37,140 nt of DNA from Mycobacterium sp. (GTDB lineage Bacteria > Actinomycetota > Actinomycetes > Mycobacteriales > Mycobacteriaceae), in NCBI GenBank assembly GCA_020438865.1, contig JAGQTU010000036.1, positions 1 to 37,140 of the forward strand, given 5' to 3'. Made by a program: the position numbers and the translations under genes. Position 1 is the first letter of the stretch. Every line of letters starts with the position of its first letter. The notes beneath the pieces were generated by a model. It was given only the letters and a program-made list of their open reading frames with translations, was not told the DNA's origin and did not search any database. This document shows, in pieces, positions 4,882 to 24,814 of the stretch.

Positions 4882-5643
4882 TCAGGTGATGGTCAGCCCG
4901 CCGTCGACGACGATCGTCTGGCCGGTGACGTAGCCGGCCGCCGGCGAGGACAGCCACACCGCCGTGGCCGCCAGCTCGGCGGGATCGCCGATGCGGCCCA
5001 GCACGATTCGCGGCAGCTGGCTGTCGAGATAGCCCGGCTTGTACTCGTCGGTCATCTCGCTCTTGAAGAAGCCCGGCGCCAGCGCGTTGACCCGAATTCC
5101 CTTGCGGGCCCCCCACTGCTGGGCCAGGTCGCGGGTCAGGCCCAGCACACCGGCCTTGGAGGCGCTGTAGGCGGCCTGCGGCAGGCCGCCGGTGGTCAGC
5201 CCGAGGATGCTGGAGACGTTGACGATCGCACTGCCCGGCTGCATCACCCGCGCGCAGGCCTGCGCCATCCAGTACGAGCCGTGCAGGTTGACGTCGACGA
5301 CCGCGCGGAACTGCTCGGGGGTCTCCCGGGTCGCCGGCACCGCGGTGCCCACCCCGGCGTTGTTGATCAACACGTCCACCCGGCCGAACGTCTCGATCGC
5401 CGAATCCACCAGCGCCTGACACTGCTCGGGGTCGGCCACGTCGGTCATCCGGGTGTAGACCCGGCGCCCGGCGGCCTCCACCAGCGCCGCGGTCTGCGCC
5501 ATCCGCTCCACCCGCCGCGCACCGAGCACCAGGTCGGCCCCGGCTTCGGCGAAGGCCTGCGCGAAGGAGACGCCCAGCCCGGAGGACGCGCCGGTGACGA
5601 CGACGACCTTGTCGGTCAACCGGAACAAGTCGACGACTGTCAT
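4882..5643 (-). CDS. Short-chain dehydrogenase/reductase, module A
   Basis: A 253-residue classical SDR. It shows the nucleotide-binding TGASSGLG (residues 17-24), NNAG (94-97), the catalytic Ser144/Ser145 with YSASK (Tyr159, Lys163), and the C-terminal TGQTIVVDGG typical of FabG-like enzymes. It probably oxidises or reduces a hydroxyl/keto group on an acyl-CoA or similar substrate with NAD(P). It is the last gene of a minus-strand run phosphotransferase - acyl-CoA dehydrogenase - SDR; the 55-nt gap upstream carries a GAGGAATCCC site before the ATG. In an lva-like reading it would interconvert 4-keto and 4-hydroxyacyl-CoA or act on the 3-hydroxy product. Substrate is inference. Confidence 0.88.
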   Translation of the reverse strand: MTVVDLFRLTDKVVVVTGASSGLGVSFAQAFAEAGADLVLGARRVERMAQTAALVEAAGRRVYTRMTDVADPEQCQALVDSAIETFGRVDVLINNAGVGTAVPATRETPEQFRAVVDVNLHGSYWMAQACARVMQPGSAIVNVSSILGLTTGGLPQAAYSASKAGVLGLTRDLAQQWGARKGIRVNALAPGFFKSEMTDEYKPGYLDSQLPRIVLGRIGDPAELAATAVWLSSPAAGYVTGQTIVVDGGLTIT

Positions 5644-5698
5644 GGGATTCCTCGCTCCTCCTCGGGGCTCGTGCCTCGCCCCGCATCGTCGACTCGGG

Positions 5699-6877
5699 TC
5701 ATCGCGGGCTCCTCAGCACCTGGCGGGCGATCGCGTACTTGTGCACCTCGGTCGGCCCGTCGTAGAGCCGGAAGGCGCGCATGTCGGAGAAGATCATGCC
5801 GACCGGTGTCTCGTCGGAGATGCCCATCCCGCCCAGGATCTGGACGCAGCGGTCGGCCACCTTGAACAACTCCTCGGACACGTAGGCCTTGACCATCGAG
5901 CTTTCGTGGCGGCCCTTGGCGCCGGTGTCCAGCGCCCAGCACGCCCACCAGATCGCGAGTCGGCACTGCTGCAGCGCAATCTCGTTGTCGGCCAACATGA
6001 ATCCGACGCCCTGGTGCTCGCCGAGCGGCTTGCCGAACGCGGTGCGGGTGCGGGCGTAGTCGACGGCGATCGAATGGGCGCGCGATGCCGCGCCGAGCCA
6101 GCGCATGCAGTGCGTCAACCGGGCCGGGGTCAGCCGCAGCTGGGCGTAGCGCAACGCCTGGCCCACCTCGCCGAGCACCGCATCGGCCGGCAGCCGCAGG
6201 TCGCGGAACTCGACCACGCCGTGACCCTGGACATAGTTGCGGTCCATCGTGTTCATCACCCGCTCGAGGTGAATCCCGGGGGTCTGCCCGTCGCAGAGGA
6301 ACAGCGTCGGCCCGTCGGCCCCGTACGGGTTGGGCGCGAGGCGGGCCATGATGATCCAGGTCCGCGCGCCGTCGGCGCCGGTGATCAGCCACTTGCGGCC
6401 GTTGATCACATACTCGCTGCCGTCGAACACCGCCCCGGTGGCCAACTGGCCCGGGTCCGACCCGGCGCCGCCGGGTTCGGTCATCGCGAACACCGAGCGC
6501 TGGCGGCCGTCGATGACCGGCACCAGGAAGCGTTCCACCTGCTCGTCATTGGCGATCTTGCCCAGCACGAACATGTTGCCCTCGTCGGGGGCGGCGCAGT
6601 TCAGCGCGACCGGCCCCAGCGTCGACCAGCCGGCGGCCTCGAACAGCACCGCCTGCTCGCGGTGCGAGGGCTCCCGGCCGCCGAACCGGCGCGGCGCCTG
6701 GAAGGTCAGCAGACCGGCGTCCCGGGCCAGCCCCACCAATTCGGTTCGCAGGTCCTCGTCGGGGCCGTGCCGGGTCAGCCGCGAATCACGCTCGTACGGC
6801 ACGATCTTGTCGACGACGAAGGCGCGGATCTCGTCGCGCAACGCCGCCAGGTCGGCCGGGATCTCGAAGTCGATCAT
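5699..6877 (-). CDS. Acyl-CoA dehydrogenase of the ACAD10/11 (LvaC)-like type, module A
   Basis: A 392-residue flavoprotein with the full acyl-CoA dehydrogenase fold. Motifs are FAMTEPGGAGSDP in the FAD/substrate-binding middle domain, GRKWLITGA, RTRTAFGKPLGEHQ and ILGGMGI. At the position of the usual catalytic Glu (MCAD 'YEGT') it has YDGPTEVHK, with Asp373. The family with this motif includes ACAD10/ACAD11, which act on 4-phosphoacyl-CoA rather than making a simple double bond. The ATG overlaps the stop of the phosphotransferase gene (ATGA), so the pair is translationally coupled, mirroring the kinase-dehydrogenase fusion in human ACAD10/11. Assignment to 4-hydroxyacyl-CoA metabolism is inference. 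Confidence 0.88.
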   Translation of the reverse strand: MIDFEIPADLAALRDEIRAFVVDKIVPYERDSRLTRHGPDEDLRTELVGLARDAGLLTFQAPRRFGGREPSHREQAVLFEAAGWSTLGPVALNCAAPDEGNMFVLGKIANDEQVERFLVPVIDGRQRSVFAMTEPGGAGSDPGQLATGAVFDGSEYVINGRKWLITGADGARTWIIMARLAPNPYGADGPTLFLCDGQTPGIHLERVMNTMDRNYVQGHGVVEFRDLRLPADAVLGEVGQALRYAQLRLTPARLTHCMRWLGAASRAHSIAVDYARTRTAFGKPLGEHQGVGFMLADNEIALQQCRLAIWWACWALDTGAKGRHESSMVKAYVSEELFKVADRCVQILGGMGISDETPVGMIFSDMRAFRLYDGPTEVHKYAIARQVLRSPR

Positions 6878-7902
6878 CGCTCTCCGTCCATAATCGCCAG
6901 TGCCCGCTCGAACAGTCGCACCGTCGCGATGTGCAACCGATCGCCAATCTCCTTGGGCGCCAGGCCCGCAGCGGCCCGCGCGTTCGAGCCCTCCAGGATG
7001 ATGCCCAGCTTGAAGCAGGCCAACACCGTGTACCAGTCGATGTGGGTCAGGTCGCGGGTGGTGTTCTGCGCGTACCGGGCCACCAACTCGTCCGGGGTGG
7101 CCAGGTTCCCCGCGTCCATCAGCACGTTGGTCAGCACCGAGTCGTGGCCGGGGTCATACCAGGTGGCCAGCATCCAGCCCAGGTCCAGCAACGGGTCACC
7201 GATGGTGCACATCTCCCAGTCGACGATCGCCACCACCTCGGGGCCGGTGGGGGAGAACATCACGTTCGCGGCGTGGTAGTCGCCGTGCATGATCCCCGGC
7301 GTCCACGTTGCGGGCTGGTTCCGCTGCAGCCACGTCGCCACCGCCGCCACGTCCCCGATGTCGGGTCCCGGGTAGGCCTCGATACCGTTGTAGGACTCCA
7401 ACTCCGAAAGCCAGCGCGGCACTTGGCGATCCAGGAACCCCTCGGCCTTGCCGAAGTCGGCGAGGCCGACCGCGACGTGGTCGACGGCGCCCAGCCGGGC
7501 CACCGCGTCGGCCATCGACAGGCCCATCTCGTGACGGATGCCGGCATCGCCGGCGTGCAGCGCCGGCAGCCCGGAACCGGCGTTGAAGCCGTCGACCGGC
7601 TCCATCAAATAGAAGACCGCGTCGCCGAGCACCGACGTGTCCTCGCACACCGCGATCAGCCGCGGATGCGGAACGTCGGTGCCGGCCAGCGCGTGCAGCA
7701 CCTTGGTCTCGCGCAGGATCACCTTGTTGCTGACCGGACGCAGATGCTCGGGCCCGCGCCGGAAGACGTACTCGCGGCCGGACCGGGTGAACCGCAACAT
7801 GATGTTCTGGGTGCCGCCGACGATCGCGGAGACGTTCGCCACCGGGCCCTCACCCAGACCCTGCTCCGACATCCAGGCGGCCACCGAGGTCAGGTACTCC
7901 AC
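6874..7902 (-). CDS. APH-fold phosphotransferase (LvaA/ACAD11-kinase-like), module A
   Basis: A 342-residue protein of the aminoglycoside phosphotransferase superfamily. The catalytic loop is HGDYHAAN (His206-Asn213) and the metal-binding Asp is in VDWE (Asp228); the N-lobe has IVGGTQN in place of a glycine-rich loop. True drug kinases are rarely coupled to acyl-CoA dehydrogenases, whereas LvaA and the ACAD10/11 N-terminal domains phosphorylate the 4-hydroxyl of 4-hydroxyacyl-CoA. The gene overlaps the acyl-CoA dehydrogenase by 4 nt and begins with GTG 10 nt after the ThrE-like gene. A TACGGT hexamer at 7916-7921 could give an internal start with a leader of about 7 nt. Often annotated as 'FadE36-like' or 'phosphotransferase family protein'. 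Substrate inferred. Confidence 0.85.
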   Translation of the reverse strand: MEYLTSVAAWMSEQGLGEGPVANVSAIVGGTQNIMLRFTRSGREYVFRRGPEHLRPVSNKVILRETKVLHALAGTDVPHPRLIAVCEDTSVLGDAVFYLMEPVDGFNAGSGLPALHAGDAGIRHEMGLSMADAVARLGAVDHVAVGLADFGKAEGFLDRQVPRWLSELESYNGIEAYPGPDIGDVAAVATWLQRNQPATWTPGIMHGDYHAANVMFSPTGPEVVAIVDWEMCTIGDPLLDLGWMLATWYDPGHDSVLTNVLMDAGNLATPDELVARYAQNTTRDLTHIDWYTVLACFKLGIILEGSNARAAAGLAPKEIGDRLHIATVRLFERALAIMDGER

Positions 7903-7912
7903 GCCGGTGAAG

Positions 7913-9229
7913 CTACCGTACGGTTGGTTGGGCCAGTCCCTTCGGCCACGGCAACCGGGCGTCGATGGTGTGGAAGACGCTCCACCCGACCACCGTGCCC
8001 AGCGCGATCGACAGGATCGCCGCCCCGGTGGCGCCCAGGCTGGACACCCCGATGTTGCCCCCGGACGCCGCCTGGCTCACCGATTCGAAACTCAGCGCGC
8101 CCGGCACCAGCGACCAGAACGCCGAGAGCATCATCACGATGGCCGACGGCGCGGTCTTCACCCGCGCAGCCACCATAGAGAAGGGCACCACCAGGATGGC
8201 GCCGACGAATCCGGAGTGCGCCGCCGACATCGCCGTCCCGGCGAGGCTCTGCCCGACCAGGGCGACCGCGATCGCCGCGATGATCCACGGCAGTGACCGC
8301 CGGGGTGCGGACAGATAGATGTTGAGCCCGATGGCGACCACGACGATCGCGACGTACAGCGACCAGGCGCCCATCTGCGCCGACGGGCTCTGTGGGTAGA
8401 CCTCACCGGCGATCTCCACCCCCAGGGCGACCCCGAACACCAACAGCGCCAGCTGCGCCAGCCCGTAGACCAGCCGACTGGCGCCCGAAATGATCTGGGA
8501 CGCCGCCAGTTCCATGGCGCCGATGGTCAGCGCCATCCCGGGAAGGGTGGCCACCAGCGGGGGAGCGATCACCCGCAGCAGCCCGTCGTGGGCGGTGTCG
8601 GCGACGAACCAGGTGGCCAGCGCGGTGACGATGGTCGCCGACAGCGTCGGCAGCATCGGGTTCAGGCCGGGGAATGGCCGGCCCAGCTGCACGATGCCGC
8701 CGACCACCAGCCCGAGGAACAGATAGCCGGGCAACGACGCCCAGGTCGGATTGATCACCATGCCGAATCCCACTGTCGTGACGGCATATCCGATGGTGGT
8801 GAGGACCGGCCCGAACCGGGGCCGCAGGGTGCGGGCCGCCTCGATGGCGGCGATGGCGTCGGCGGGCGTGATGGCGCCCACGGCGGCCAGGCTGGCGATG
8901 TCGTCGATGCGACCGGCCATGTCGAGTTGCAGCGACGCGTGGGTCGACCCGTCGACCTCGTAACCGACGCTACCCACCTGGATCATCAACATCGTCGGCA
9001 GCACCACCACCCGAACCGGTTCGGTGGTGTACTGCGCGGCGATCTGCAACAGCCGGCCTTCCACCAACTGGGTCGGCTGCTCCACCTCCACCAGCGCGAT
9101 GCCGATCTCCCGCAGCATCGCGGCGACGTCGGCCTGGTCGTGGGTGTCCGGCGGGGCGAGCGGTTCGGGTGGTGTCTTGCGGATCGCATTGAAGACCCGC
9201 AGCCGGCGCGCGCGTCGTTTCTCGTTCAT
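7913..9229 (-). CDS. ThrE-family threonine/serine exporter-like membrane protein
   Basis: A 438-residue protein. The N-terminal soluble part (about residues 30-130) contains the ThrE-1 features VEVEQPTQLVEGRLLQIA and VVVLPTMLMIQVG. It is followed by about ten hydrophobic segments including GYAVTTVGFGMVINP and a second half with the ThrE-2-like FVGAILVVPFSMVAARVKTAPSA. The family exports threonine and serine in Corynebacterium; substrate here is unproven. It sits upstream of the kinase/dehydrogenase/SDR genes with a 10-nt gap, so it may be co-transcribed, though its role in that pathway is unclear. Upstream of the ATG a CATGAT hexamer lies at the right distance for a leaderless start but lacks the first T. 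Confidence 0.82.
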   Translation of the reverse strand: MNEKRRARRLRVFNAIRKTPPEPLAPPDTHDQADVAAMLREIGIALVEVEQPTQLVEGRLLQIAAQYTTEPVRVVVLPTMLMIQVGSVGYEVDGSTHASLQLDMAGRIDDIASLAAVGAITPADAIAAIEAARTLRPRFGPVLTTIGYAVTTVGFGMVINPTWASLPGYLFLGLVVGGIVQLGRPFPGLNPMLPTLSATIVTALATWFVADTAHDGLLRVIAPPLVATLPGMALTIGAMELAASQIISGASRLVYGLAQLALLVFGVALGVEIAGEVYPQSPSAQMGAWSLYVAIVVVAIGLNIYLSAPRRSLPWIIAAIAVALVGQSLAGTAMSAAHSGFVGAILVVPFSMVAARVKTAPSAIVMMLSAFWSLVPGALSFESVSQAASGGNIGVSSLGATGAAILSIALGTVVGWSVFHTIDARLPWPKGLAQPTVR

Positions 9230-9283
9230 ACCGGCATCATGGCGCAGCGCCGGGGTCAGGTGTCGACAGCTACGCCGGCTTTT

Positions 9284-9676: not shown

Positions 9677-9682
9677 CGCCGA

Positions 9683-9688
9683 ATTGTA
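9683..9688 (-). promoter_or_regulatory. -10 box TACAAT for the DUF1622 gene (leaderless)
   Basis: TACAAT on the minus strand ends 7 nt from GTG 9676, predicting that the transcript starts with the G of the start codon. It decides the short start over the long open frame. Confidence 0.55.
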
Positions 9689-9794: not shown

Positions 9795-9800
9795 GGAGCC

Positions 9801-15235: not shown

Positions 15236-15238
15236 GCT

Positions 15239-16885
15239 TCAGGTCCGCAGCGCCGCCACCGCGGCGCGGTTGGTCTCGAAGACGTGGTGTCCCTGCAGCA
15301 GGTGCATCCGTTCCAGATTGGCCAGCAGTTCCGGCCGCACCCGCGAGTAGCCGAACGTGATGGACCTGCCCTGCAGCCACTGCAGTTCCTTGGCCAGTGC
15401 CTCCGCGCCGGTGACGTCGACGTTGGTGACGCCCTCCATGTCGAGGATGAAGGCGTGCACCGGGTTCGGGGCGTCCTGAACGGCCCGCCTGATCGCGGTG
15501 CTGAGCGTCTGCGCATTACCGAAGAAGATCGGGGCGGCGAACCGCATGGCGATCAAGCCGGGCACCGTCTCGCGCACGTCATCGTGACCGAAGGTCAGGG
15601 AGATGTGCGGATCGTCGGAGCCTTGCAGCACGTCGACGGCCGGGCGCGCCGCCCGGGTCAGCAGGTTGATCAACGACAGGATGAACGCCAACACGATCCC
15701 CGCGAGCGGGCCGATCAACAGCACGCCAGCGAAACATGTTGCACCGACCGCGAACTCGAACCGGGACAGCTGCCACAGGTGCCGGAACTCGGCGACGTTG
15801 ATCAACTTGAGCACCGCGACCGCGACGATCGCCCCGATCGCCGGGGACGGGATGTCCGACAGCAGGCCGGTGCCGAACAGCAGCAACAGCAGGGTGCCAG
15901 CCGCCATCACCAGCAACGGCAGCTGGCTGCGGGTGCCTGCCTGGTCCATCGCCGCCGCCCGTGACGTCGACGATCCCATGGTGAACGACGAGGACAGTCC
16001 GGAGGTGAGGTTCGCGAAGCCGAACGCGGCCAGGTCGCGGTCCGGGGAGGTCTGGTAGCCGTACCTGTCGGCGAAGGAGCGGGCGAGCAACAGGCCCTCG
16101 CCCATCGTGACGACGGTCAGGGCCAGGGCGGGCAGGATCAGCCGTACCCACTCGGCGAGGCTCAACTGCGGGAACGCGAACACGGGCGGTCCGCTCGGAA
16201 CGCTACCCAGCACGCCGACACCCTTGCCGGACAGGTGCAACGCCAGGGACACCGCGGTGGCGGCCACCAGGACGATCAGCGCCCACGGCACCCGCGGCCA
16301 GTGCCGTCGGCCGGGGATCAGGATCGCCAGCGAGAACACACTCACCGCCACCGACCACCAGTGCACCGCACCCAGTCGCGTCACCAGGGTGGCCAGCTTC
16401 TCGAAGAACTCCGCGCTGGAAGCCACCCGGATCCCCAGCATCCGGGCGATCTGGCTGACCAGGATGTCGGTGGCGAGCCCGGCGATGAAGCCGACCAGGA
16501 TCGGCTTGGACAGGAAGTTGGCCAGGAAGCCTAACCGGAAGACGCTGAAGAGCAGGAACAGCAGGCCGCCGATGATGGCCATCCCCGCCGCCATCGCCGC
16601 GTAGTGCGGGCTGCCCGCCGCGGCCAGGCCCAGCAGCGCCGAGCCGACCAGCGCCGAGGCGGCCGCGTCGGGCGCGGCGACCAGTTGACGCGACGACGCC
16701 AGCAGCGCGAAAACCACCGACGGCACGACGAGCGCGTACAGCCCCGCGATGGGCGGCAACCCGGCGATCTGGGCGTAGCCGATGTTCAGTGGCAACGCGA
16801 TCGCGAGCAGCGTGATCCCGCCCAGCACCTCGGTGCCGACGTTCTTCCGGGTCAACCCCGGCAGCAGTTTCATCGGCGCAATCAT
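15239..16885 (-). CDS. SulP-family sulfate/anion transporter with STAS domain
   Basis: A 548-residue transporter. The N-terminal membrane part has the SulP signature ALPLNIGYAQIAGLPPIAGLYALVVP and SSRQLVAAPDAAASALVG, then ten or more helices, including the conserved LTSGLSSSFTMGSSTSRAA. The C-terminal cytoplasmic STAS domain spans about residues 440-545 with FILDMEGVTNVDVTGAEAL. The family moves sulfate, bicarbonate or other anions; the adjacent divergent alkyl sulfatase favours sulfate or a sulfur-related role. ATG 16885 is chosen (ATG 16873 is an alternative). The frame is open further upstream, but that would run into the divergent gene. It converges on the ArnT-like gene with only 3 bp between the stops. 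Confidence 0.87.
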   Translation of the reverse strand: MIAPMKLLPGLTRKNVGTEVLGGITLLAIALPLNIGYAQIAGLPPIAGLYALVVPSVVFALLASSRQLVAAPDAAASALVGSALLGLAAAGSPHYAAMAAGMAIIGGLLFLLFSVFRLGFLANFLSKPILVGFIAGLATDILVSQIARMLGIRVASSAEFFEKLATLVTRLGAVHWWSVAVSVFSLAILIPGRRHWPRVPWALIVLVAATAVSLALHLSGKGVGVLGSVPSGPPVFAFPQLSLAEWVRLILPALALTVVTMGEGLLLARSFADRYGYQTSPDRDLAAFGFANLTSGLSSSFTMGSSTSRAAAMDQAGTRSQLPLLVMAAGTLLLLLFGTGLLSDIPSPAIGAIVAVAVLKLINVAEFRHLWQLSRFEFAVGATCFAGVLLIGPLAGIVLAFILSLINLLTRAARPAVDVLQGSDDPHISLTFGHDDVRETVPGLIAMRFAAPIFFGNAQTLSTAIRRAVQDAPNPVHAFILDMEGVTNVDVTGAEALAKELQWLQGRSITFGYSRVRPELLANLERMHLLQGHHVFETNRAAVAALRT

Positions 16886-16922
16886 GCGACCGGCACCGTC
16901 GCCCTGGGGGAGGATTCGCAAC

Positions 16923-18800
16923 ATGGAGCACAAACCCCCCGCACCGGTCATCGAGGCCGCCCACGCCGAGCACCTGACCACACTGCCGTTCGACGACACC
17001 GCCGACTTCGACGACACCGACCGCGGCTTCATCGCCGCCCTGCAGCCGTGCGTGGTCACCGCCGCCGACGGCCGGGTGGTGTGGGACAACGACGTCTACG
17101 AGTTCCTGGCCGGTGACGCACCCACCTCGGTGCATCCCAGCCTGTGGCGGCAGTCCATCCTGGCCGCGAAGCAGGGCCTCTATGAGGTGGTCGAAGGCAT
17201 CTACCAGGTGCGCGGACTGGACCTGTCCAACATCAGTTTCATCGAGGGCGACACCGGCGTCATCGTGATCGACCCGTTGATCTGCACCGAGACCGCCGCG
17301 GCCGCGCTGGCGCTGTATCGCGCCCACCGCGGGGACCGTGCGGTCAGCGCCGTGATCTATACCCACAGCCACGTCGATCACTTCGGCGGCGTACTCGGCG
17401 TGACCACGCAGGCCGACGTGGACGCCGGCAAGGTCGCGGTGATCGCCCCCGAGGGGTTCGTCCAGCACGCGGTGCAGGAGAACGTGTACGCCGGCACCGC
17501 GATGACCCGCCGCGCCACCTACATGTACGGCACGCTGCTGGACCGCGGCCCGCGCGGGCAGGTCGGCTGCGGGCTGGGCCAGAACACGTCCACCGGCGAG
17601 ATCGCCATCATCGTGCCGACCATCGACATCACCACCACCGGGGAGACGCACACCATCGACGGCGTCGAGATCGAGTTCCAGATGGCGCCGGGCACCGAGG
17701 CGCCCGCCGAAATGCACTTCTACTTCCCGCAGTTCCGGGCGCTGTGCATGGCCGAGAACGCCACCCACAACCTGCACAACCTGCTGACCCTGCGCGGCGC
17801 GCTGGTGCGCGACCCGCACGCCTGGTCGGGCTATCTGACCGAGGCCATCGACACCTTCGCCGATCGCACCGACGTGGTGTTCGCCTCCCATCACTGGCCG
17901 ACCTGGGGCCGGGACAACATCGTGAAGTTCCTTTCGCTGCAACGTGATCTGTATGCCTACCTGCACGACCAGACGCTGCGGCAGCTCAACCAGGGTTATA
18001 CCGGCATCGAGATCGCCGAGACCTTCCAGATGCCGCCCGCGTTGCACAACGCCTGGCACGCGCACGGCTACTACGGCTCGGTGAGCCACAACGTCAAGGC
18101 CGTCTACCAGCGCTACATGGGTTGGTTCGACGGCAATCCGGGCCGGCTGTGGGCGCATCCCCCGGAGGCGATCGGTCCGCGCTACGTCGCGGCCATGGGC
18201 GGAATCGACCGAGTGGTAGAGCTCGCCCGCGCGGCCTTCGAATCCGGCGACTATCGCTGGGCCGCAACCCTTCTCGACCATGCGATCTTCACCGACGAGA
18301 ACCACACCGGAGCCCGCGAACTGTACGCGGACACCCTCGAGCAGCTCGGGTACGGGGCCGAGTGCGCCACTTGGCGCAACTTCTTCCTGTCCGGTGCCAC
18401 TGAACTGCGCGACGGCAACTTCGGAACGCCGGTGAACACCACCTCGACGACGATGCTGAGCCAGCTGACGCCGGAGCAGATGTTCGACACCCTGGCGATC
18501 AGCGTGAACGGCCCGCGGGCCTGGGATCTCGACATCGCGGTGGACCTGACGTTCACCGATCTCGCCACCAACTACCGGCTGACCCTGCGCAACGGTGTGC
18601 TGGTCTACCGCAAGTGTCCCGCGGACGCGTCGAGCGCGAATGTCACCGTCACACTGGCCACCAAGATGCGGCTGCTGGCCGCCGCTGCAGGCGATTTCAG
18701 CTCACCGGGCCTGGAGACGAGTGGGGACGCGACGGCGCTGCAGGCGCTGCTCGGTGCATTGGACCGACGCAACCCGGACTTCAACATCATCACGCCCTGA
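16923..18800 (+). CDS. Type III alkyl sulfatase, metallo-beta-lactamase fold (Rv3762c-like)
   Basis: A 625-residue enzyme that cleaves alkyl sulfate esters to alcohol and sulfate. The metal site THSHVDHFGG is at residues 147-156, preceded by VIVIDPLICTETAAAAL and followed by AENATHNLHNLLTLRGA and FASHHWPTWG. A helical dimerisation domain (about 390-500) and a C-terminal SCP2-like lipid-binding domain complete the SdsA-like layout. No signal peptide is seen, unlike secreted SdsA1, so it is probably intracellular. Length matches Rv3762c from memory. A GGGGGAGGA ribosome site lies 8 nt before the ATG. Only 37 bp separate it from the divergent SulP gene, so shared control is likely. Confidence 0.9.
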   Translation: MEHKPPAPVIEAAHAEHLTTLPFDDTADFDDTDRGFIAALQPCVVTAADGRVVWDNDVYEFLAGDAPTSVHPSLWRQSILAAKQGLYEVVEGIYQVRGLDLSNISFIEGDTGVIVIDPLICTETAAAALALYRAHRGDRAVSAVIYTHSHVDHFGGVLGVTTQADVDAGKVAVIAPEGFVQHAVQENVYAGTAMTRRATYMYGTLLDRGPRGQVGCGLGQNTSTGEIAIIVPTIDITTTGETHTIDGVEIEFQMAPGTEAPAEMHFYFPQFRALCMAENATHNLHNLLTLRGALVRDPHAWSGYLTEAIDTFADRTDVVFASHHWPTWGRDNIVKFLSLQRDLYAYLHDQTLRQLNQGYTGIEIAETFQMPPALHNAWHAHGYYGSVSHNVKAVYQRYMGWFDGNPGRLWAHPPEAIGPRYVAAMGGIDRVVELARAAFESGDYRWAATLLDHAIFTDENHTGARELYADTLEQLGYGAECATWRNFFLSGATELRDGNFGTPVNTTSTTMLSQLTPEQMFDTLAISVNGPRAWDLDIAVDLTFTDLATNYRLTLRNGVLVYRKCPADASSANVTVTLATKMRLLAAAAGDFSSPGLETSGDATALQALLGALDRRNPDFNIITP

Positions 18801-18865: not shown

Positions 18866-18871
18866 GCAGGT

Positions 18872-19846
18872 CTAGGCGACGTCGATGACGACCTTGCCCA
18901 CCGCCTTGCGGTCGGCCACGTAGCGCAGCGCGGCGGACGCCTGTTCGAGGGGGAAGCGGGCTCCGATGTACGGACGCAGCTTGCCCTCGGCGAACAGCTG
19001 CCGAAGCTCGGCGTCGTCCCGCTCGATGGCGTCCGGGTAGTCGGTGGCGAAGGTCCGGATCTCCATGCCGACCACGGTGATGCCCTTGAGCATCACCAGG
19101 TTGAGCGGGATCCTGGGGATCTCGCGGGAAGCGTAGCCCAGTGTGACGAAGCGGCCGCCCCGGCCCAGGCCGCGCAGGGCCGGCTCGGAGTAGCGGCCAC
19201 CGACCGGGTCGAGCACGACCTGTGCGCCGGCCTCCCCGGTGATCTCCTTGAGACGGGCCTTCAGATCCTCGCGGTCGTAGTCGACGCATGCCTCGGCGCC
19301 GCGCTGCCGGCACACCCCCAGCTTGTCCTCGCCCGACGCAGCGGCAATGACCCTGGCGCCCATCAGAACCGCGATGTCGACAGCGGCCAGGCCCACCCCG
19401 CCGGCGGCCCCGAGTACCACCACCCAGTCACCGGGCTTGACCGGTGCCACCGTTCGCAGCGTGTAGTAGGCGGTGCGATTGGTCACCCCGAAGGCCGCGG
19501 CGTCGGCGTAGTCGACACCGTCCGGGATCCGGGTCAGCCCGCGGGCGTCGACCAGGATCTGTTCGGCGAAGCCGCCGACGAACGCCGTCGCGGACACCCT
19601 GTCGCCGGGCCGTAGGTCGACCCCGTCGCCCACCGCCAGCACGTCGCCGGCCATCTCGCTGCCCGGACTGAACGGCGGGGGCACCTTGATCTGGTACTTG
19701 CCCGCGATCAGCAACACGTCCGGATAGTTGACCGCCGCCGCCCGCACCTTCACCACCGCTTGGCCGGGACCGGCTGTCGGGTCGGGCAATTCGTCGAGGA
19801 CGAGATCCTCCGGCGTGCCGTACTCGCGGCAGACCAACGCTCGCAT
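18872..19846 (-). CDS. Zinc-independent NADPH:quinone oxidoreductase-like protein (MDR family)
   Basis: A 324-residue medium-chain reductase. The N-terminal GroES-like domain has MRALVCREYGTPEDLVLDE and PGSEMAGDVLAVG; the Rossmann domain has GAAGGVG at residues 146-152. The zinc-binding cysteines and histidines of alcohol dehydrogenases are absent, so it fits the quinone oxidoreductase (QOR) group. It probably reduces enones, quinones or enoyl-CoA-type compounds with NADPH. It is the last gene of the five-gene operon that starts at 23588. Its ATG overlaps the TetR stop by 1 nt (TGATG); a GTG one codon earlier is also open. In the proposed pathway it could reduce an unsaturated intermediate. 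Confidence 0.85.
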   Translation of the reverse strand: MRALVCREYGTPEDLVLDELPDPTAGPGQAVVKVRAAAVNYPDVLLIAGKYQIKVPPPFSPGSEMAGDVLAVGDGVDLRPGDRVSATAFVGGFAEQILVDARGLTRIPDGVDYADAAAFGVTNRTAYYTLRTVAPVKPGDWVVVLGAAGGVGLAAVDIAVLMGARVIAAASGEDKLGVCRQRGAEACVDYDREDLKARLKEITGEAGAQVVLDPVGGRYSEPALRGLGRGGRFVTLGYASREIPRIPLNLVMLKGITVVGMEIRTFATDYPDAIERDDAELRQLFAEGKLRPYIGARFPLEQASAALRYVADRKAVGKVVIDVA

Positions 19847-20469
19847 CACCGTCCTCCATCCGTCAAGCCCAAGCCGGCCAGGCAGAAGCCCACCACGTGG
19901 TCGATGTCCCTGCGTCCCGGCTGCCTGCTGGAGTCAAGGTAGCCGCGCATCGCGCCCAGTGTGCAATTGAACACCGCATCGGCATCGCGCTGGGGGTCGG
20001 GACGGCCGAGCTCGCGGATCGGTTCGAGAAGCAGGTTCCGCAGCGTGCCCACGATCTCCTCCTGAGCAAGCCGACCATTGTCGGTGCTGGTCAGCTGGAT
20101 CACCAGGGCGCGGCTGGTGTTGGTCAGCTCCGGATCCACCACCTGGGCCAGGGCGCCCCGGATCCACCGCGCGATCTTGTCCTGCGGGCGCCTCTCCTTG
20201 GCCATCTGGTGCTCAAGATACGAAACCACCAGTGCGACACCGCGTTCCATGGCGGCCAGCATAAGGTCGTCCTTACCGGCGAAGTACCGGTAGAACGCCT
20301 TGTTCGACACCCCGGCCTCGGCGATGATCTCGCTGACTCGTGGCGCCTCCGGGGACACCCGCTGCATCACCCGCACGGCGGCGGCCAGGATGCGTTCCAC
20401 CTCCTCGGTGGCCTCGCGCTGACGGTCGTCGAGGGCGCGCACCACGGCGGCGGCGGCTCGATCCGTCAT
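19846..20469 (-). CDS. TetR-family transcriptional regulator
   Basis: A 207-residue regulator with the TetR helix-turn-helix RVSEIIAEAGVSNKAFYRYFAGKDDLM at about residues 44-70 and a helical ligand-binding C-terminal domain. It is encoded inside the operon, overlapping the acyl-CoA dehydrogenase by 4 nt (ATGA) and the quinone oxidoreductase by 1 nt. This placement suggests autoregulation through the inverted repeat at 23610-23626 in front of the operon. Its ligand is probably an acyl-CoA or related intermediate of the module; that is inference. Confidence 0.88.
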   Translation of the reverse strand: MTDRAAAAVVRALDDRQREATEEVERILAAAVRVMQRVSPEAPRVSEIIAEAGVSNKAFYRYFAGKDDLMLAAMERGVALVVSYLEHQMAKERRPQDKIARWIRGALAQVVDPELTNTSRALVIQLTSTDNGRLAQEEIVGTLRNLLLEPIRELGRPDPQRDADAVFNCTLGAMRGYLDSSRQPGRRDIDHVVGFCLAGLGLTDGGR

Positions 20470-21773
20470 GGCGAAACGGGCAGCGCGGGAATGTGATCCA
20501 CGAGGTGGCCGTACTTCTCCCGCGCGCGCTCGATGCGGTTGGTCATGAACTCGCTGGGCCAGACCGGGTCCTCGGGTTCGTAACCCTTGAGCACCATCCG
20601 GGCCAGGTTCACCTTGTGCGCCTCGGTCGGCCCGTCGGCCAGCCCGAGCGCGATGCCACCGAACAGCACACTGCTCAGCGGCATCTGGTCGGTCAGCCCG
20701 AGGCCGCCGTGCACCTGGATGGCCCGCAGGCCGATCGACTTGAGCACATTGGCGGTCTGGATCTTGCAGGCGGCGATGGCCTCCCGCGCGGCGTGCTCGC
20801 CCCGGGTGTCGACCAGCCAGGCGGCGTGCAGCACCAGCAGGCGGAACTGGGCAAGCTCGACGTAGGAGTCGGCGACGAACTCCTGGATCAGCTGCTTGTC
20901 GGCCAGCAGGCTGCCCTGGGTGAAGCGGCTCTTCGCGCGCCGGCCCATCATGTCGATCGCCCGCTGCGCCACGCCGATGGAGCGCATCGCGTGGTGCAGC
21001 CGGCCCCCGGCCAGCCGGGACTGTGCGACGCCGAAGCCGCCGCCCTCCTCGCCGAGCATGGCCGAGGCCGGCACCCGCACATTGTCATAGCGAACCAGCG
21101 AATGCCCGGGATCGTGCTTGTGCGAGCCGACGAGGTGGTGGGTGGCCTCGACGACGACCCCCGGGGTGTCCTTGGGAACCAGGAAGGTCGACGCGCCCTT
21201 GTGCACCGCGACGTCCGGGTTGGTGATCGCCACGACGATGAAGAACGAGGCCACCGAGGCATTGGACGACCAGTACTTGCGGCCGTTGATGATCCAGTCG
21301 TCCCCGTCGCGCGCCGCCCGGGTGGTGAACACCCGCGGGTCCGAGCCACCCTGCGGCTCGGTCATGGAGAACGTCGAGAAGATCTCCCCGGACAGCAGCC
21401 CGGCCAGATAGGTGTCCTTCTGCTCCTGGGTGCCGAAGCGCGCGATGATCTCCGCGTTGCCGGTGTCGGGGGCCTGGGCGCCGAAGATGATCGACGACCA
21501 GGTGGCCCGGCCCAGGATCTCGTTGATCAGGGTCAGCTTCACCGCACCGAAACCTTGGCCGCCGAGCTCCGGTCCCAGGTGCGGCGCCCACAGGCCCTGT
21601 TCGCGGACTTTCTGCTTGAGCGGGTCGACGATGCGCCGGCGCTCGTCGTTCAGCGGCAGGAACTCACAGCTCGGGAAGAGCACCTCGAGGGGCTCGACCT
21701 CCTCGCGGACGAACTCGCGAATCCACTCGAGCTTCTTCTCGAACTCCGGCTCCACGGAGAAATCGAATGCCAT
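20466..21773 (-). CDS. Acyl-CoA dehydrogenase of the ACAD10/11 (LvaC)-like type, module B
   Basis: A 435-residue enzyme. It shows FSMTEPQGGSDPRVF, GRKYWSSNAS, a RLAGGRLHHAMRSIG helix, IQVHGGLGLTDQMPLS and ADGPTEAHK. As in the module A enzyme, the residue aligned with the MCAD catalytic Glu is Asp (Asp380). The C-terminal extension of about 40 residues resembles mycobacterial acyl-CoA dehydrogenases of the ACAD11 group. The frame is open to 21938, but ATG 21773 (MAFDFSVEPEF) is preceded by AAGGAG and is the natural start. It lies between the SDR and TetR genes. Proposed substrate: a 4-phosphoacyl-CoA made by the phosphotransferase of the same operon (inference). Confidence 0.88.
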   Translation of the reverse strand: MAFDFSVEPEFEKKLEWIREFVREEVEPLEVLFPSCEFLPLNDERRRIVDPLKQKVREQGLWAPHLGPELGGQGFGAVKLTLINEILGRATWSSIIFGAQAPDTGNAEIIARFGTQEQKDTYLAGLLSGEIFSTFSMTEPQGGSDPRVFTTRAARDGDDWIINGRKYWSSNASVASFFIVVAITNPDVAVHKGASTFLVPKDTPGVVVEATHHLVGSHKHDPGHSLVRYDNVRVPASAMLGEEGGGFGVAQSRLAGGRLHHAMRSIGVAQRAIDMMGRRAKSRFTQGSLLADKQLIQEFVADSYVELAQFRLLVLHAAWLVDTRGEHAAREAIAACKIQTANVLKSIGLRAIQVHGGLGLTDQMPLSSVLFGGIALGLADGPTEAHKVNLARMVLKGYEPEDPVWPSEFMTNRIERAREKYGHLVDHIPALPVSP

Positions 21774-21784
21774 GTCACTACTCC

Positions 21785-22543
21785 TTAGGGGATGCCGCCG
21801 TCGGCGCGCAGGATCGAGCCGGTGGTGAAACTGGATGCGTCGGACATCAAGAACAGTGCCGCGCCGATGATCTCGTCCGGCTGACCGGCGCGCTGCAGCG
21901 CGTGGCGGCCGAACGGGTTCTGCACGCCGAAATCCCACGCCTTGCTGATGTCGGTCAGGAACGGCCCGGGCATCAGCGTGTTGACCCGGACGGTCGGCCC
22001 GAACGCCAGCGCCAGGCCCTCGGTCATCGCGTTGAGCCCGGCCTTCGAGGCCGCGTAGGGGATGAACGACGGGTGCGGGCGCAGCGAGCCGTGGGTGCTG
22101 ACGTTGATGATCACCCCGCCACCGCCGGCCACCATCCGCTCACCCACCAGCGCGGACAACCGGAAGGGGCCCTTGAGGTTCAGGTTGACCACCGAATCGA
22201 ACAGCTTCTCGCTGACGTCGGTGAGCTTGTCGTAGGTGGGCGACATGCCCGCGTTGTTCACCAGCACGTCGATCTTGCCGAACCGGTCGTACACCGCCTC
22301 GACCAGACCGTCGAGCTCTTCCCAGCGGCCGACGTGGACGGCGTACGGCATTGCGGTCCGGCCGGTTTCGTCCTCGATCTGCTTGGCGGTCTCCACACAG
22401 GTGTCGTACTTGCGGCTGGCCACGATCACGTCGGCGCCGCAGCGTGCGGCCGCGAACGCCATCTCCCGGCCCAGGCCGCGGCTGCCGCCGGTGATCAGCA
22501 CGACTCGGTCGGTCAGGTCGAAAAGGTCGTCGGCGTAACCCAT
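21785..22543 (-). CDS. Short-chain dehydrogenase/reductase, module B
   Basis: A 252-residue SDR with ITGGSRGLG (residues 17-25), NNAG (96-99), Ser149, YAASK (Tyr163, Lys167) and a C-terminal TGSILRADGG. It starts one base after the phosphotransferase stop, with GGAGG 6 nt before the ATG, so the genes are translated as one unit. Likely NAD(P)-dependent interconversion of a hydroxyl and a ketone on the substrate acyl chain. It is a different subfamily from the module A SDR (different cofactor-loop and active-site surroundings), so this is not a simple recent duplication. Confidence 0.87.
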   Translation of the reverse strand: MGYADDLFDLTDRVVLITGGSRGLGREMAFAAARCGADVIVASRKYDTCVETAKQIEDETGRTAMPYAVHVGRWEELDGLVEAVYDRFGKIDVLVNNAGMSPTYDKLTDVSEKLFDSVVNLNLKGPFRLSALVGERMVAGGGGVIINVSTHGSLRPHPSFIPYAASKAGLNAMTEGLALAFGPTVRVNTLMPGPFLTDISKAWDFGVQNPFGRHALQRAGQPDEIIGAALFLMSDASSFTTGSILRADGGIP

Positions 22544-22544
22544 C

Positions 22545-23588
22545 TCAGGCCTCCGCGCCGGACTGGGCCAACCGTGCGGCGGTGCCGATCAGGTCGGGCG
22601 CCATCTTGCCGAACGCCTCCTTGACCTGAGGGTCGGCCTTGCCGCCGGTGACGGCGGCGGCATAGGTCTTCTCCAGCACGATGCCCAGCTTCCAGTTCGC
22701 CAGCACCAGGTAGTAGTGGATGTTCTCGGTGGAGATGCCGGTCAGCTTCTCGTAGTGCGCCAGCAGTTCGGTGCGGGTCGGCATGCCTTCCATCGGCAGG
22801 TAGAAGCCCTGGGTCTTGGGTTCTTCGCCGTCATAGCCCAGCAGCGCCCAGGCGACGTCGAGAAGCGGATCACCGATCGTCGTCATCTCCCAGTCCACGA
22901 TCGCCGCCAGCCGCGCCGGCGCCCCGTGGGCGTACATGACGTTGGCGAACTGGTAGTCGCCGTGCATGATGCCCGGCGTGAAGTGGGCGGGGCGGTTGCG
23001 CCGCAACCAGTCCGAGGCCACGTCCAGTCCCGGCAGCTCGCGCACCTTGAACGAGTCCAGGAAGGACAACCAGCGGTCGACCTGGCGGTCGTGGAAGCCG
23101 TCCGGCTTGCCGAAGCCCGCCAACCCCTGGGCCTTCCAGTCCAGCCGGCCCAGCTTCGCCGCGCCCTCGATGAGTTGGAACGCCAAACCGCGGCGGGCCT
23201 GGAGGTCGGTGTCGAACGGGGCCGCCCAGCCGCCGTCCATCGGGCTCCAGCCGTCGATCTCCTTCATCAGGTAGAACGGCTTGCCCAGCACCTCGCCGCT
23301 CTCGTCGGCGGCGACCAGTTCGGCATGCGGGACGTCGGTGCCCTTCAACGCGCGCTCGAGGCGGATCTCGCGCAGCAGCTCGCTCAGCCGCCGCTCGTCG
23401 GCGCGCGGGCCGGGCATCCGCAACACCATGCCCTGGCCGCCGCGGCTGACCTTGTACAGCATGTTCTGTGATCCGCCCTTGAGCACGTCGGCCACCGGCT
23501 CCTCGCCGTGGCCCGGGGCGTCCTGGCTGTCCAGCCACCGGCCCAGGGTGACGGTGTCCAGGTCGACCGGACTGTCGGTTCTCGTCAT
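22545..23588 (-). CDS. APH-fold phosphotransferase (LvaA/ACAD11-kinase-like), module B
   Basis: A 347-residue member of the aminoglycoside phosphotransferase superfamily with an N-lobe KGGSQNMLY motif, the catalytic loop HGDYQFAN (His209-Asn216), and Asp232 in VDWEMTTIGDPLLDVAW. As the first gene of an operon with an SDR, an acyl-CoA dehydrogenase, a TetR regulator and a quinone oxidoreductase, it is much more likely to act on acyl-CoA than on drugs. ATG 23588 follows GGGAG, and the promoter just upstream overlaps a palindromic operator. The kinase reaction (4-hydroxyacyl-CoA to 4-phosphoacyl-CoA) is inferred from LvaA and ACAD10/11. Confidence 0.86.
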   Translation of the reverse strand: MTRTDSPVDLDTVTLGRWLDSQDAPGHGEEPVADVLKGGSQNMLYKVSRGGQGMVLRMPGPRADERRLSELLREIRLERALKGTDVPHAELVAADESGEVLGKPFYLMKEIDGWSPMDGGWAAPFDTDLQARRGLAFQLIEGAAKLGRLDWKAQGLAGFGKPDGFHDRQVDRWLSFLDSFKVRELPGLDVASDWLRRNRPAHFTPGIMHGDYQFANVMYAHGAPARLAAIVDWEMTTIGDPLLDVAWALLGYDGEEPKTQGFYLPMEGMPTRTELLAHYEKLTGISTENIHYYLVLANWKLGIVLEKTYAAAVTGGKADPQVKEAFGKMAPDLIGTAARLAQSGAEA

Positions 23589-23609
23589 CGCACTCCCTAC
23601 TCTCTATTT

Positions 23610-23626
23610 GGAGAATAGCATTCTCC
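23610..23626. promoter_or_regulatory. TetR-type operator, perfect 7-3-7 inverted repeat
   Basis: GGAGAAT-AGC-ATTCTCC is a perfect 7-bp inverted repeat in the 65-bp gap between the divergent module B operon and the CaiB gene. It covers the TATTCT -10 box of the minus-strand operon (23612-23617) and the expected -35 region of the plus-strand gene. The size and symmetry fit a TetR dimer, and the operon encodes one. Assignment to that regulator is inference. Confidence 0.7.
23612..23617 (-). promoter_or_regulatory. -10 box TATTCT of the module B operon
   Basis: TATTCT on the minus strand would start transcription near 23605, giving a leader of about 17 nt that contains the GGGAG ribosome site. 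It lies inside the operator. Confidence 0.45.
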
Positions 23627-23640
23627 GTAGCCGGCGGAAG

Positions 23641-23646
23641 TAGTGT
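23641..23646 (+). promoter_or_regulatory. -10 box TAGTGT for the CaiB gene (leaderless)
   Basis: TAGTGT ends 8 nt before ATG 23654, predicting a one-base leader. No ribosome-binding site is seen. Its -35 region overlaps the operator. Confidence 0.5.
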
Positions 23647-23653
23647 TTTCGGA

Positions 23654-24814
23654 ATGACAGGACCTCTGGAGGGCATCCGGGTCGTCGAACTCGGGGTGTG
23701 GGTGGCCGGACCGGCGGCCGGCGGAATTCTGGCCGACTGGGGTGCCGACGTCGTCAAGATCGAACCGCCCACCGGCGACCCGGGCCGGCTTTTCGGCGCG
23801 ATGATGGGCCTCGACGACGGGTCCAGCCCGCCGTTCGACATGGACAACCGCTCCAAACGCAGCATCGTGCTCGACCTCACCACCGACGGCGGGCAGGCCA
23901 CCGCGCGCCAACTGGTAGCCGGCGCAGACGTTTTCATCACCAACGTGCGGCCGGACGCGCTGCGCCGGCTCGCCCTGGATTATCCGTCGGTGGCCGAACT
24001 GAACCCGCGCCTGGTGTACGGGTTGATCACCGGCTATGGCGAGAAGGGCCCGGACGCGAACCGCCCGGCCTACGACATCGCGGCGTTCTGGGCCCGCTCC
24101 GGGGTGGCCGACCTGCTGACCCGGCCCGGTGACACCCCGCCGTTCCAGCGGGGCGGCATGGGGGACCACCTGACCGGTATGACGCTGGCGGCGGCGGTCA
24201 ACGCCGCCCTGGTGGCCCGCGCCCGCACCGGTGAGGGGCAACTGGTCAGCACCTCGCTGTACCGCCAGGGCGCCTACACCGTCAGCTTCGACCTGAACAC
24301 GTTCCTGTTGACCGGGCGGCCGATCGCGATCGGCCAGCGCGAGTCGATGGGCAACCCGTGCATGAACAACTACACGGCGGCGGACGGCAGGCGGTTCTGG
24401 ATCGTCGGGCTGGAGGCCGATCGGCACTGGCCACCGCTGTGCCGCGCGGTCGGGCACCCGGAATGGTTGGCCGACAGTCGGTTTGCCACCGCACGGGACC
24501 GGGCCCGCAACTCCCGCGAGCTGATCGCCGTGCTCGACGAGATCTTCGCCGCCCGGACGCTGGCCGAATGGGCCGAGATCTTCGACGGTGAGCCAGAATT
24601 GTTCTGGGCGCCGGTGAACTCGATGGAGGACGTGCTGGGCGACGAGCAGTTCCACGCCGCCGGCGGTCTGGTCGACGTACCGGACGGCGACGGTTCACTG
24701 CCGATGGTCGCCACCCCGGCCGACTTCCACGGCACACCGTGGGCGCCGCGGTCACCGGCACCGAAGCTCGGCGAGCACACCGAACAGATCCTGGCCGAAC
24801 TGGGTCGAAGCTGA
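23654..24814 (+). CDS. CaiB/BaiF-family CoA transferase-like protein with altered catalytic position
   Basis: A 386-residue class III CoA-transferase fold protein. It has the N-terminal VVELGVWVAGPAAGGILADWGADVVKIE, the DMDNRSKRSIVLDL strand, GYGEKGPDANRPAYD and GDHLTGM. In this family the catalytic Asp (Asp169 of formyl-CoA transferase, in the SMQD motif) follows the GxGQxV segment; here the segment reads GEGQLVSTSLYRQGAYT, with Arg204 at that place and no Asp in VST either. It may use another acid, be a CoA-binding non-transferase, or act as a racemase variant. It diverges from the module B operon and shares its operator region, so it probably acts on the same substrates, for example in CoA loading. 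Confidence 0.8.
   Translation: MTGPLEGIRVVELGVWVAGPAAGGILADWGADVVKIEPPTGDPGRLFGAMMGLDDGSSPPFDMDNRSKRSIVLDLTTDGGQATARQLVAGADVFITNVRPDALRRLALDYPSVAELNPRLVYGLITGYGEKGPDANRPAYDIAAFWARSGVADLLTRPGDTPPFQRGGMGDHLTGMTLAAAVNAALVARARTGEGQLVSTSLYRQGAYTVSFDLNTFLLTGRPIAIGQRESMGNPCMNNYTAADGRRFWIVGLEADRHWPPLCRAVGHPEWLADSRFATARDRARNSRELIAVLDEIFAARTLAEWAEIFDGEPELFWAPVNSMEDVLGDEQFHAAGGLVDVPDGDGSLPMVATPADFHGTPWAPRSPAPKLGEHTEQILAELGRS

What the first reader, a model, noticed from the sequence alone, without database searches (positions are those of the whole stretch)
4882..24814. Two kinase / acyl-CoA dehydrogenase / SDR modules: candidate 4-hydroxyacyl-CoA pathways
An APH-fold phosphotransferase, an acyl-CoA dehydrogenase and an SDR occur together twice (4882-7902 and 20466-23588), with overlapping or near-adjacent genes. 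In Pseudomonas levulinate catabolism (lvaABCDE) and in human ACAD10/ACAD11, this pairing phosphorylates 4-hydroxyacyl-CoA and then converts the 4-phosphate to a normal beta-oxidation intermediate. The two SDRs are from different subfamilies, so the modules probably serve different substrates rather than being a recent duplication. Module B adds a TetR regulator, a quinone oxidoreductase and a CaiB protein. A third kinase stands alone at 29682.
Basis: partly seen in the sequence, partly recalled or inferred. Interest (0 to 1): 0.8.

Follow-up and report, generated by a model that had tools for sequence, protein, structure and literature searches.

The report
Mycobacterial 4-hydroxyacyl-CoA kinase–dehydrogenase modules
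Two neighbouring gene clusters in an environmental mycobacterium each pair a kinase with an unusual acyl-CoA dehydrogenase, probably to phosphorylate 4-hydroxy fatty-acid CoAs and then remove the phosphate so the chain can be burned by normal beta-oxidation, a route known from human ACAD10/ACAD11 and a Pseudomonas operon.

Summary
In detail: two operons, A (kinase–ACAD–SDR, 7902→4882) and B (kinase–SDR–ACAD–TetR–QOR, 23588→18872), plus a third kinase, K3, at 29682. Both ACADs carry the residues that mark the 4-phosphoacyl-CoA enzymes ACAD10/11 and LvaC: catalytic Asp instead of Glu, and phosphate-binding Arg626, His634 and Arg637 (mouse ACAD11 numbering). In this genome 4 of 69 ACAD ORFs have them. 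In 80 related loci, 64 of 81 ACADs with these residues have a kinase within 300 bp, against 0 of 16 ordinary ACADs. The kinases score far below resistance-kinase cut-offs. A and B are old, separate subfamilies, not a recent duplication, and neither lies in the ACAD11 clade. The ACAD11/LvaC-type enzyme (59% identical to mouse ACAD11) is elsewhere in the genome, beside a tyrosine phosphatase. K3 is probably its partner in trans: K3-like kinases sit within 1.1 kb of an ACAD of that type in 5 of 11 genomes from other families of the order. K3 looks like the gene annotated 'acyl-CoA dehydrogenase FadE36' (orthology from recalled synteny), which would be misannotated. Substrates are unknown; no activity was tested.

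The parts
6874..7902 (-). Module A kinase (APH fold, 342 aa, GTG start)
5699..6877 (-). Module A acyl-CoA dehydrogenase of the 4-phosphoacyl-CoA type (392 aa), overlaps the kinase end by 4 bp
   Evidence: R248, R253, H256, M258, R259, D373 = mouse R626, R631, H634, M636, R637, D753; 36% to mouse ACAD11 over 328 residues
4882..5643 (-). Module A SDR (253 aa), putative 4-oxo/4-hydroxyacyl-CoA oxidoreductase
   Evidence: Pfam adh_short_C2; follows the A pair in 10 of 11 loci, and at 72-73% identity follows a different ACAD/kinase pair in L195 and L259
22545..23588 (-). Module B kinase (347 aa)
   Evidence: Pfam APH; PDB best 9o56, 3dxp, then ACAD11; catalytic motif met
21785..22543 (-). Module B SDR (252 aa)
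   Evidence: Pfam adh_short; 35% to SDR A
20466..21773 (-). Module B acyl-CoA dehydrogenase of the 4-phosphoacyl-CoA type (ATG start at 21773)
   Evidence: RLAGGRLHHAMR and ADGPTEAH; Ser at the ACAD10/11 Pro463 position; start site
19846..20469 (-). TetR regulator of operon B
   Evidence: Pfam TetR_N; 4-bp overlap with ACAD B; found in 6 of 7 B loci
18872..19849 (-).
   Evidence: Pfam ADH_zinc_N; found in 7 of 7 B loci
29682..30713 (+). Third kinase K3, likely the orthologue of the gene named FadE36 (synteny recalled); probable trans partner of the ACAD11-type ACAD at G000:C22:65027-66325
   Evidence: Pfam APH; highest ACAD11 score of the three kinases; 64% or more identical in 19 of 24 same-genus genomes
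29060..29665 (+). Histidine-phosphatase-family gene 16 bp upstream of K3
   Evidence: Pfam His_Phos_1; beside K3 in 5 of 5 relatives' loci that hold a K3 at 65% or more
23654..24814 (+). CaiB-type CoA transferase, divergent neighbour of B; possible CoA supplier, not a fixed part
   Evidence: Pfam CoA_transf_3; beside B in 3 of 7 B loci

Best explanation
Modules A and B are two independent catabolic routes for 4-hydroxy (gamma-hydroxy) acyl-CoAs. Inferred chemistry: the SDR sets the 4-position to the alcohol (4-oxo to 4-hydroxyacyl-CoA, or the reverse); the APH-fold kinase phosphorylates the 4-hydroxyl of the CoA ester with ATP, using the Asp of its HGD motif; the ACAD, with Asp instead of Glu as catalytic base and an Arg/His/Arg cluster to hold the phosphate, expels phosphate with internal flavin redox and no external electron acceptor, giving a 2-enoyl-CoA that enters beta-oxidation. 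B is probably controlled by its own TetR. K3 does the kinase step in trans for the genome's ACAD11-type ACAD. Shown by computation: gene content, families, active-site residues, operon structure, conservation. Inferred: the reaction, the direction of the SDR, the regulation, the K3 partner. Unknown: chain length and source of the substrate.
For: Active-site set R626/R631/H634/M/R637/D753 is complete in A and B; 4 of 69 ACAD ORFs of the genome have it, the other 65 do not. In mouse ACAD11 changes at R626, H634 and R637 ablated the ACAD step, and D753 is the catalytic residue (PMC12440821, passages read). The set is invariant in 28 aligned ACADs: A, B and 26 loci chosen from the 80. In the 80 loci, 81 of 97 ACAD ORFs have it (80 strictly, one with Glu for the Met) and 64 of 81 have a kinase within 300 bp on either strand, against 0 of 16 ordinary ACADs (Fisher p 1.5e-9; the loci are related, so p overstates). 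Kinase motif HGDxxxxN plus the RQ pair at ACAD11 R176. Neighbour clusters within 6 kb in 70 of the 80 loci, named by one representative each: SDR in 22 loci, AMP-binding acyl-CoA synthetase in 17, TetR in 15, enoyl-CoA hydratase in 8, CaiB in 6, two thiolase clusters in 6 and 5, the parts list of a hydroxyacyl-CoA degradation route. At the B locus of G009 kinase and ACAD are both gone (with TetR and CaiB) while SDR and QOR remain, and G009 has no kinase near B's identity elsewhere.
Against: No enzyme was assayed. ACAD B has Ser where ACAD10/11 have the cavity-opening Pro463. A and B are only 36-37% identical to mouse ACAD11, so the phosphorylated position or substrate class could have shifted. 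17 of 81 signature ACADs have no kinase within 300 bp, among them 6 Nocardia loci whose ACAD is 75-76% identical to A. The A kinase occurs without its ACAD in three relatives' loci (L189, L191, L196). No CoA ligase lies inside either operon. Own-genome adjacency alone is weak (2 of 4 against 1 of 65, p 0.0075).
Confidence: 0.8

Rival explanations
1. The pair works by phosphorylation and phosphate elimination but on another hydroxyl: a tertiary or side-chain alcohol of a steroid, terpenoid or other bulky CoA ester, like the 25-hydroxysteroid kinase (25-HSK) of Sterolibacterium, with the ACAD as the C-O lyase.
Confidence: 0.12
2. The kinases are antibiotic-modifying (aminoglycoside/macrolide) phosphotransferases that happen to lie beside beta-oxidation genes.
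For: Pfam family APH; NCBIfam APH(3'), capreomycin and (for B) viomycin phosphotransferase models match weakly, as does thiamine kinase for A and K3; same fold.
Confidence: 0.03
3. The ACADs are ordinary electron-transferring acyl-CoA dehydrogenases and the kinase only regulates or does an unrelated job.
Against: Catalytic Glu replaced by Asp and polar phosphate-binding residues conserved in the aligned relatives; sequence scores put 4hr3 and ACAD11 first.
Confidence: 0.05

Closest known systems
Mammalian ACAD10 / ACAD11 (kinase domain + ACAD domain)
   Same: Kinase and ACAD of the same two families; catalytic Asp, R626/H634/R637 set and kinase Asp220/Asn225/Arg176 conserved
   Different: Separate genes, not fused; ACADs only 36-37% identical and outside the ACAD11 clade; SDR in the operon; no HAD domain
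Pseudomonas putida lva operon (LvaA kinase, LvaC ACAD, LvaE CoA synthetase; LvaB and LvaD roles recalled)
   Same: Kinase + ACAD + short-chain reductase side by side
   Different: No LvaE-like ligase inside either operon; a TetR in B where the lva operon has LvaR; no small gene between the operon genes, but LvaB was not compared. LvaC is reported 62%/56% identical to human ACAD10/11 (PMC11342911, passages), so it should fall in the ACAD11 clade, unlike A and B; its sequence was not in hand
Mycobacterial FadE2 (likely the own-genome ACAD at G000:C22:65027-66325) and 'FadE36' (likely K3); orthology recalled from gene order
   Same: The C22 ACAD is 59% identical to mouse ACAD11 with the full signature; K3 is the matching kinase type
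   Different: Unlinked to each other; FadE36 is annotated as an acyl-CoA dehydrogenase (PMC11278869, passages) although K3 is a kinase
PDB 4hr3 (Mycobacterium abscessus ACAD) and 3dxp (Ralstonia kinase)
   Same: 4hr3 is the best solved sequence match of both ACADs; 3dxp and 9o56 are the best of the three kinases
   Different: Deposited as putative proteins; no function known to me

Membership tests
4-phosphoacyl-CoA ACAD (ACAD10/11, LvaC) | Catalytic Asp at ACAD11 D753 instead of Glu | tested here: met
   A D373, B ADGPTEAH
4-phosphoacyl-CoA ACAD (ACAD10/11, LvaC) | Phosphate-binding R626, H634, R637 (HCMR motif) | tested here: met
   A HCMR, B HAMR, upstream Arg in both
4-phosphoacyl-CoA ACAD (ACAD10/11, LvaC) | Helix-breaking Pro (human ACAD11 P463), module A | tested here: met
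4-phosphoacyl-CoA ACAD (ACAD10/11, LvaC) | Helix-breaking Pro (human ACAD11 P463), module B | tested here: not met
   Ser in window B and in 3 of 5 close B orthologues aligned; Pro in the other 2
ACAD11/LvaC orthologue clade | Groups with mouse ACAD11 inside one supported clade | tested here: not met
   The own C22 ACAD does (99*); B with C313 form a sister clade (100*), A lies further out (quick tree, 62 rows, 9 ordinary own ACADs as outgroup)
4-phosphoacyl-CoA ACAD (ACAD10/11, LvaC) | Phosphate elimination without electron acceptor | not testable with these tools
   needs an enzyme assay
LvaA / ACAD10-11 kinase | Catalytic Asp220, Asn225, CoA-side Arg176 | tested here: met
   A, B, K3 and own C316. 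The paper's R86 could not be placed: the conserved Arg beside the alpha-C Glu counts as 84 here
LvaA / ACAD10-11 kinase | 4-hydroxyacyl-CoA kinase activity | not testable with these tools
   needs an enzyme assay
lva operon | Kinase + ACAD + short-chain reductase in one operon | tested here: met
   (reductase as an lva part is recalled)
lva operon | CoA synthetase (LvaE) in the operon | tested here: not met
   None inside A or B; the AMP-binding gene at 1714-3393(+) matches fatty-acid CoA/AMP ligase models below their cut-offs
lva operon | LvaB, small protein (role with LvaA recalled) | not tested
   No LvaB sequence in hand
Aminoglycoside phosphotransferase (resistance) | Score above the NCBIfam APH(3') cut-off | tested here: not met
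   24.5-26.5 bits against 205
25-hydroxysteroid kinase | Closest structural and sequence relative | tested here: inconclusive
   Second by fold, far behind by sequence

The most novel reading that the evidence does not exclude
Mycobacteria carry a multi-paralogue phosphorylation/phosphate-elimination system for gamma-hydroxyacyl-CoAs: a core pair in which the gene called FadE36 is really a kinase acting in trans with the ACAD11 orthologue FadE2 (itself beside a tyrosine phosphatase), plus operon modules A and B built by mixing kinases, ACADs and SDRs from different subfamilies to serve different 4-hydroxy substrates, possibly including lipid-peroxidation products.
Probability: 0.5. Interest if true: 0.7.

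Novelty: new variant of a known kind. Interest (0 to 1): 0.52.

Why it matters
It gives a testable function to two operons that family models name only as generic kinase, dehydrogenase and reductase genes. It also makes FadE36, cited as an acyl-CoA dehydrogenase, a predicted kinase, and FadE2 a predicted ACAD11-type enzyme. If correct, mycobacteria share with mammals a dedicated route for 4-hydroxy fatty acids such as peroxidation products, with several versions in one genome. A search of the held open-access library for '4-hydroxyacyl-CoA' together with 'mycobacteri' found 0 papers; papers outside that library were not seen.

Tried and rejected
Antibiotic-kinase reading: rejected on NCBIfam scores. 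Recent duplication of A and B: rejected on identities and tree. Fold search to tell the ACADs apart: uninformative, ACAD11 and SCAD are close. ACAD11 itself and 9o56 are not in the 50 rows listed for the kinase model; that says nothing against them, since the sequence search finds both. R86 of ACAD11 could not be matched by my count. Kinase-less signature ACADs: 10 neighbouring ORFs from five of the 17 such loci (L207, L222, L232, L240, L250) were scanned for a replacement kinase and none was one; an enoyl-CoA hydratase follows the ACAD in Nocardia L207. The other 12 loci were not scanned this way. CaiB as a fixed module part: rejected. A further kinase-ACAD pair in the genome (C110:96514-98746) has an ordinary Glu active site and a kinase without the RQ pair, so it counts as an ordinary ACAD beside a kinase (the 1 of 65). 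Substrate identity from context: not resolved. Paper searches for lva/LvaA/levulinyl-CoA terms (30 of 64 listed), kinase + ACAD + operon + 4-hydroxy (6 of 6 listed) and gamma-lactone/levulinate/Mycobacterium terms (10 of 86 listed) showed no title on a mycobacterial version; only listings and abstract starts were seen for these.

Limits: both trees are quick searches with SH-aLRT only. In the kinase tree the two outgroup rows do not form one side of a branch and long branches meet. Outgroup ACADs come from this genome only. 2 of 18 APH places of the genome were not fetched. The alignment of the most divergent of the 69 ACADs is rough, but motif search agrees. The neighbour tally dropped 10 of 80 loci as near-duplicates (L201, L202, L203, L208, L209, L210, L213, L214, L219, L220), and its gene caller found the kinase cluster in only 35 of 70 loci, so its counts are minima. 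Mycobacterium as host genus rests on the best named hits. Rv numbers and gene order of M. tuberculosis are recalled, apart from Rv3761c = FadE36, Rv0154c = fadE2 = MSMEG_0102 and Rv0153c = PtpB.
Full report
WHAT IS THERE. The window is one whole contig (C299) of a 4.96-Mb draft genome. The best named matches to ACAD A are Mycobacterium species (95% in Mycobacterium sp. M26, 89% in M. rhodesiae), so I take it for an environmental mycobacterium. Module A reads kinase (7902-6874), ACAD (6877-5699), SDR (5643-4882), all on the minus strand; kinase and ACAD share ATGA. A ThrE-family gene lies 10 bp upstream. Module B reads kinase (23588-22545), SDR (22543-21785), ACAD (start at 21773, behind AAGGAG), TetR (20469-19846), QOR (19849-18872), with 4-bp overlaps at both TetR ends. 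CaiB (23654) is divergent.

ARE THEY 4-PHOSPHOACYL-COA ENZYMES? For mouse ACAD11 the published determinants are the catalytic Asp753, where other ACADs have Glu, and Arg626, His634 and Arg637 on one active-site helix; disrupting that helix ablates the ACAD step and lets the phospho-intermediate build up (PMC12440821, passages). ACAD10 phosphorylates 4-hydroxyacyl-CoA and yields 2-enoyl-CoA without needing an electron acceptor, and a bacterial orthologue pair was run in the same assay (PMC11342911, passages). In the HMMER alignments ACAD A has RLTPARLTHCMR and DGPTEVH, ACAD B has RLAGGRLHHAMR and DGPTEAH, aligned to the ACAD11 residues. The best PDB sequence matches of both ACADs are 4hr3, then the three ACAD11 chains, above every ordinary ACAD listed.

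CENSUS. The genome has 73 PF00441 places, which fall in 69 distinct ORFs. Four of 69 carry the signature: A, B, C313:22007-23308 and C22:65027-66325; the other 65 do not have the set. Of 18 APH places 16 were examined. Kinases with the ACAD11-like RQ pair and DWE motif are A, B, K3 and C316, with C110:119176 partly alike. A and B are adjacent pairs; the C313 and C22 ACADs and the K3 and C316 kinases are unlinked.

RELATIVES. In 28 aligned ACADs (A, B and 26 of the 80 loci) the six positions are invariant. Of 97 ACAD ORFs in the 80 loci, 81 have the set (80 strictly; L237 has Glu for the Met) and 16 are ordinary. A kinase lies within 300 bp of 64 of the 81 and of 0 of the 16. The 17 without one include six Nocardia loci at 75-76% identity to A, and some lie near contig ends. 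Recurrent nearby families are SDR, acyl-CoA synthetase, TetR, enoyl-CoA hydratase, CaiB and thiolase. This association is the strongest evidence that kinase and signature ACAD work together.

HISTORY. The quick tree separates the signature ACADs from nine ordinary ones of this genome (96*). Inside, mouse ACAD11, 4hr3 and the own C22 ACAD fall in one clade (99*); B and C313 fall in another (100*), sister to it (99*); A belongs to a third set with relatives in Frankia, Nocardia, sphingomonads and Burkholderiales. C22 is 59% identical to mouse ACAD11; A and B are 36% and 37%. So this genome holds an ACAD11-type enzyme and two older side branches. C313-type ACADs lie beside B-like kinases in seven relatives' loci (L163-L168, L179), so here the C313 ACAD seems to have lost or moved its kinase. 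The kinase tree (long branches flagged) does not match the ACAD tree: kinase A groups with C316 and is sister to the B kinases, while relatives of ACAD A in Frankia, Polymorphobacter, a Streptomyces bin, a Sphingomonadales bin, an Alcaligenaceae strain and another Mycobacterium have kinases of a different clade (100*). In L195 and L259 a 72-73% SDR-A orthologue follows a different ACAD and a K3-like kinase. Kinases thus seem exchangeable between modules, as expected if they act on a diffusible acyl-CoA.

SYNTENY. Among 30 loci searched the A order is kept in 10 of 11 that hold both A kinase and A ACAD, and all five B genes in order in 6 of 7 B loci; in G012 and G016 the B block sits away from the AlkSulf/HisP locus, as a unit. 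Seven of the 12 relatives with a B kinase at 71% or more were looked at. At the B locus of G009 the kinase, ACAD, TetR and CaiB are missing while SDR and QOR stay. In G006, G016 and G017 the A kinase stands at this locus without its ACAD, a point against strict coupling.

THE THIRD KINASE. K3 has the best ACAD11 score of the three kinases (115.5 bits against 91.5 and 91.9). It is 64% or more identical in 19 of 24 same-genus genomes, and no signature ACAD was seen in the flanks fetched with those 19 (1.5 kb or less). In genomes of other families of the order, K3-like kinases (42-47% identical) lie within 1.1 kb of a signature ACAD in 5 of the 11 that have one at E 1e-60 (G027, G029, G035, G038, G040). 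All five of these ACADs have RLGPGRIHHCMR, exactly the motif of the own C22 ACAD. In Nocardia stercoris a K3-like kinase (47%) lies directly beside such an ACAD. K3-like kinases also pair with another ACAD type (RLGPARMTHVMR) in G016, G022, L251, L258 and L259, so the partner is not fixed by kinase type alone. I infer that K3 serves the unlinked C22 ACAD. That ACAD is followed by a tyrosine-phosphatase gene, with an AlaDh/PNT gene on its other side beyond a two-component pair, which recalls fadE2-ptpB-pntA of M. tuberculosis; K3 near a betaine-type ABC transporter recalls Rv3756c-Rv3761c. If so, FadE36, reported as an acyl-CoA dehydrogenase (PMC11278869, passages), is a kinase.

VERDICT. The finding is a new variant of a known kind, of interest mainly for mycobacterial lipid metabolism and for the FadE36/FadE2 prediction.

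Noticed in passing
window 29060-29665 and 29682-30713: A histidine-phosphatase-family gene precedes K3 here and in 5 of 5 relatives' loci that hold K3; in L192 and L196 it remains without K3. ACAD10 carries a HAD domain that restrains its kinase, so a phosphatase paired with this kinase type may be regulatory.
   Followed up: partly
L070:9803-11833 (G000:C22): The ACAD11-type ACAD of this genome is followed by a tyrosine-phosphatase (Y_phosphatase3) gene, the family to which I recall mycobacterial PtpB belonging; why a 4-phosphoacyl-CoA-type ACAD neighbours this phosphatase is unexplained.
   Followed up: partly
window 16782-18800: An alkyl sulfatase lies beside operon B and next to or within 3 kb of the B-type QOR gene in L181, L182, L185, L186, L188, L191 and L205. 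Whether it feeds hydroxy compounds into B is open.
   Followed up: no
G000:C110:96514-98746 (L072): A further kinase-ACAD pair whose ACAD has an ordinary Glu active site and whose kinase lacks the RQ pair: a different kind of kinase/ACAD partnership.
   Followed up: partly
L204 (JAKIXW010000015.1): A contig titled Acidobacteria carries module A at about 84% ACAD identity in the mycobacterial gene order; probably a misbinned mycobacterial contig.
   Followed up: no
window 26631-29021: The wax ester synthase/DGAT ORF is 796 aa as listed, and the Pfam catalytic domain starts only at residue 376: either the true start is far downstream or there is an N-terminal part without a Pfam match.
   Followed up: no
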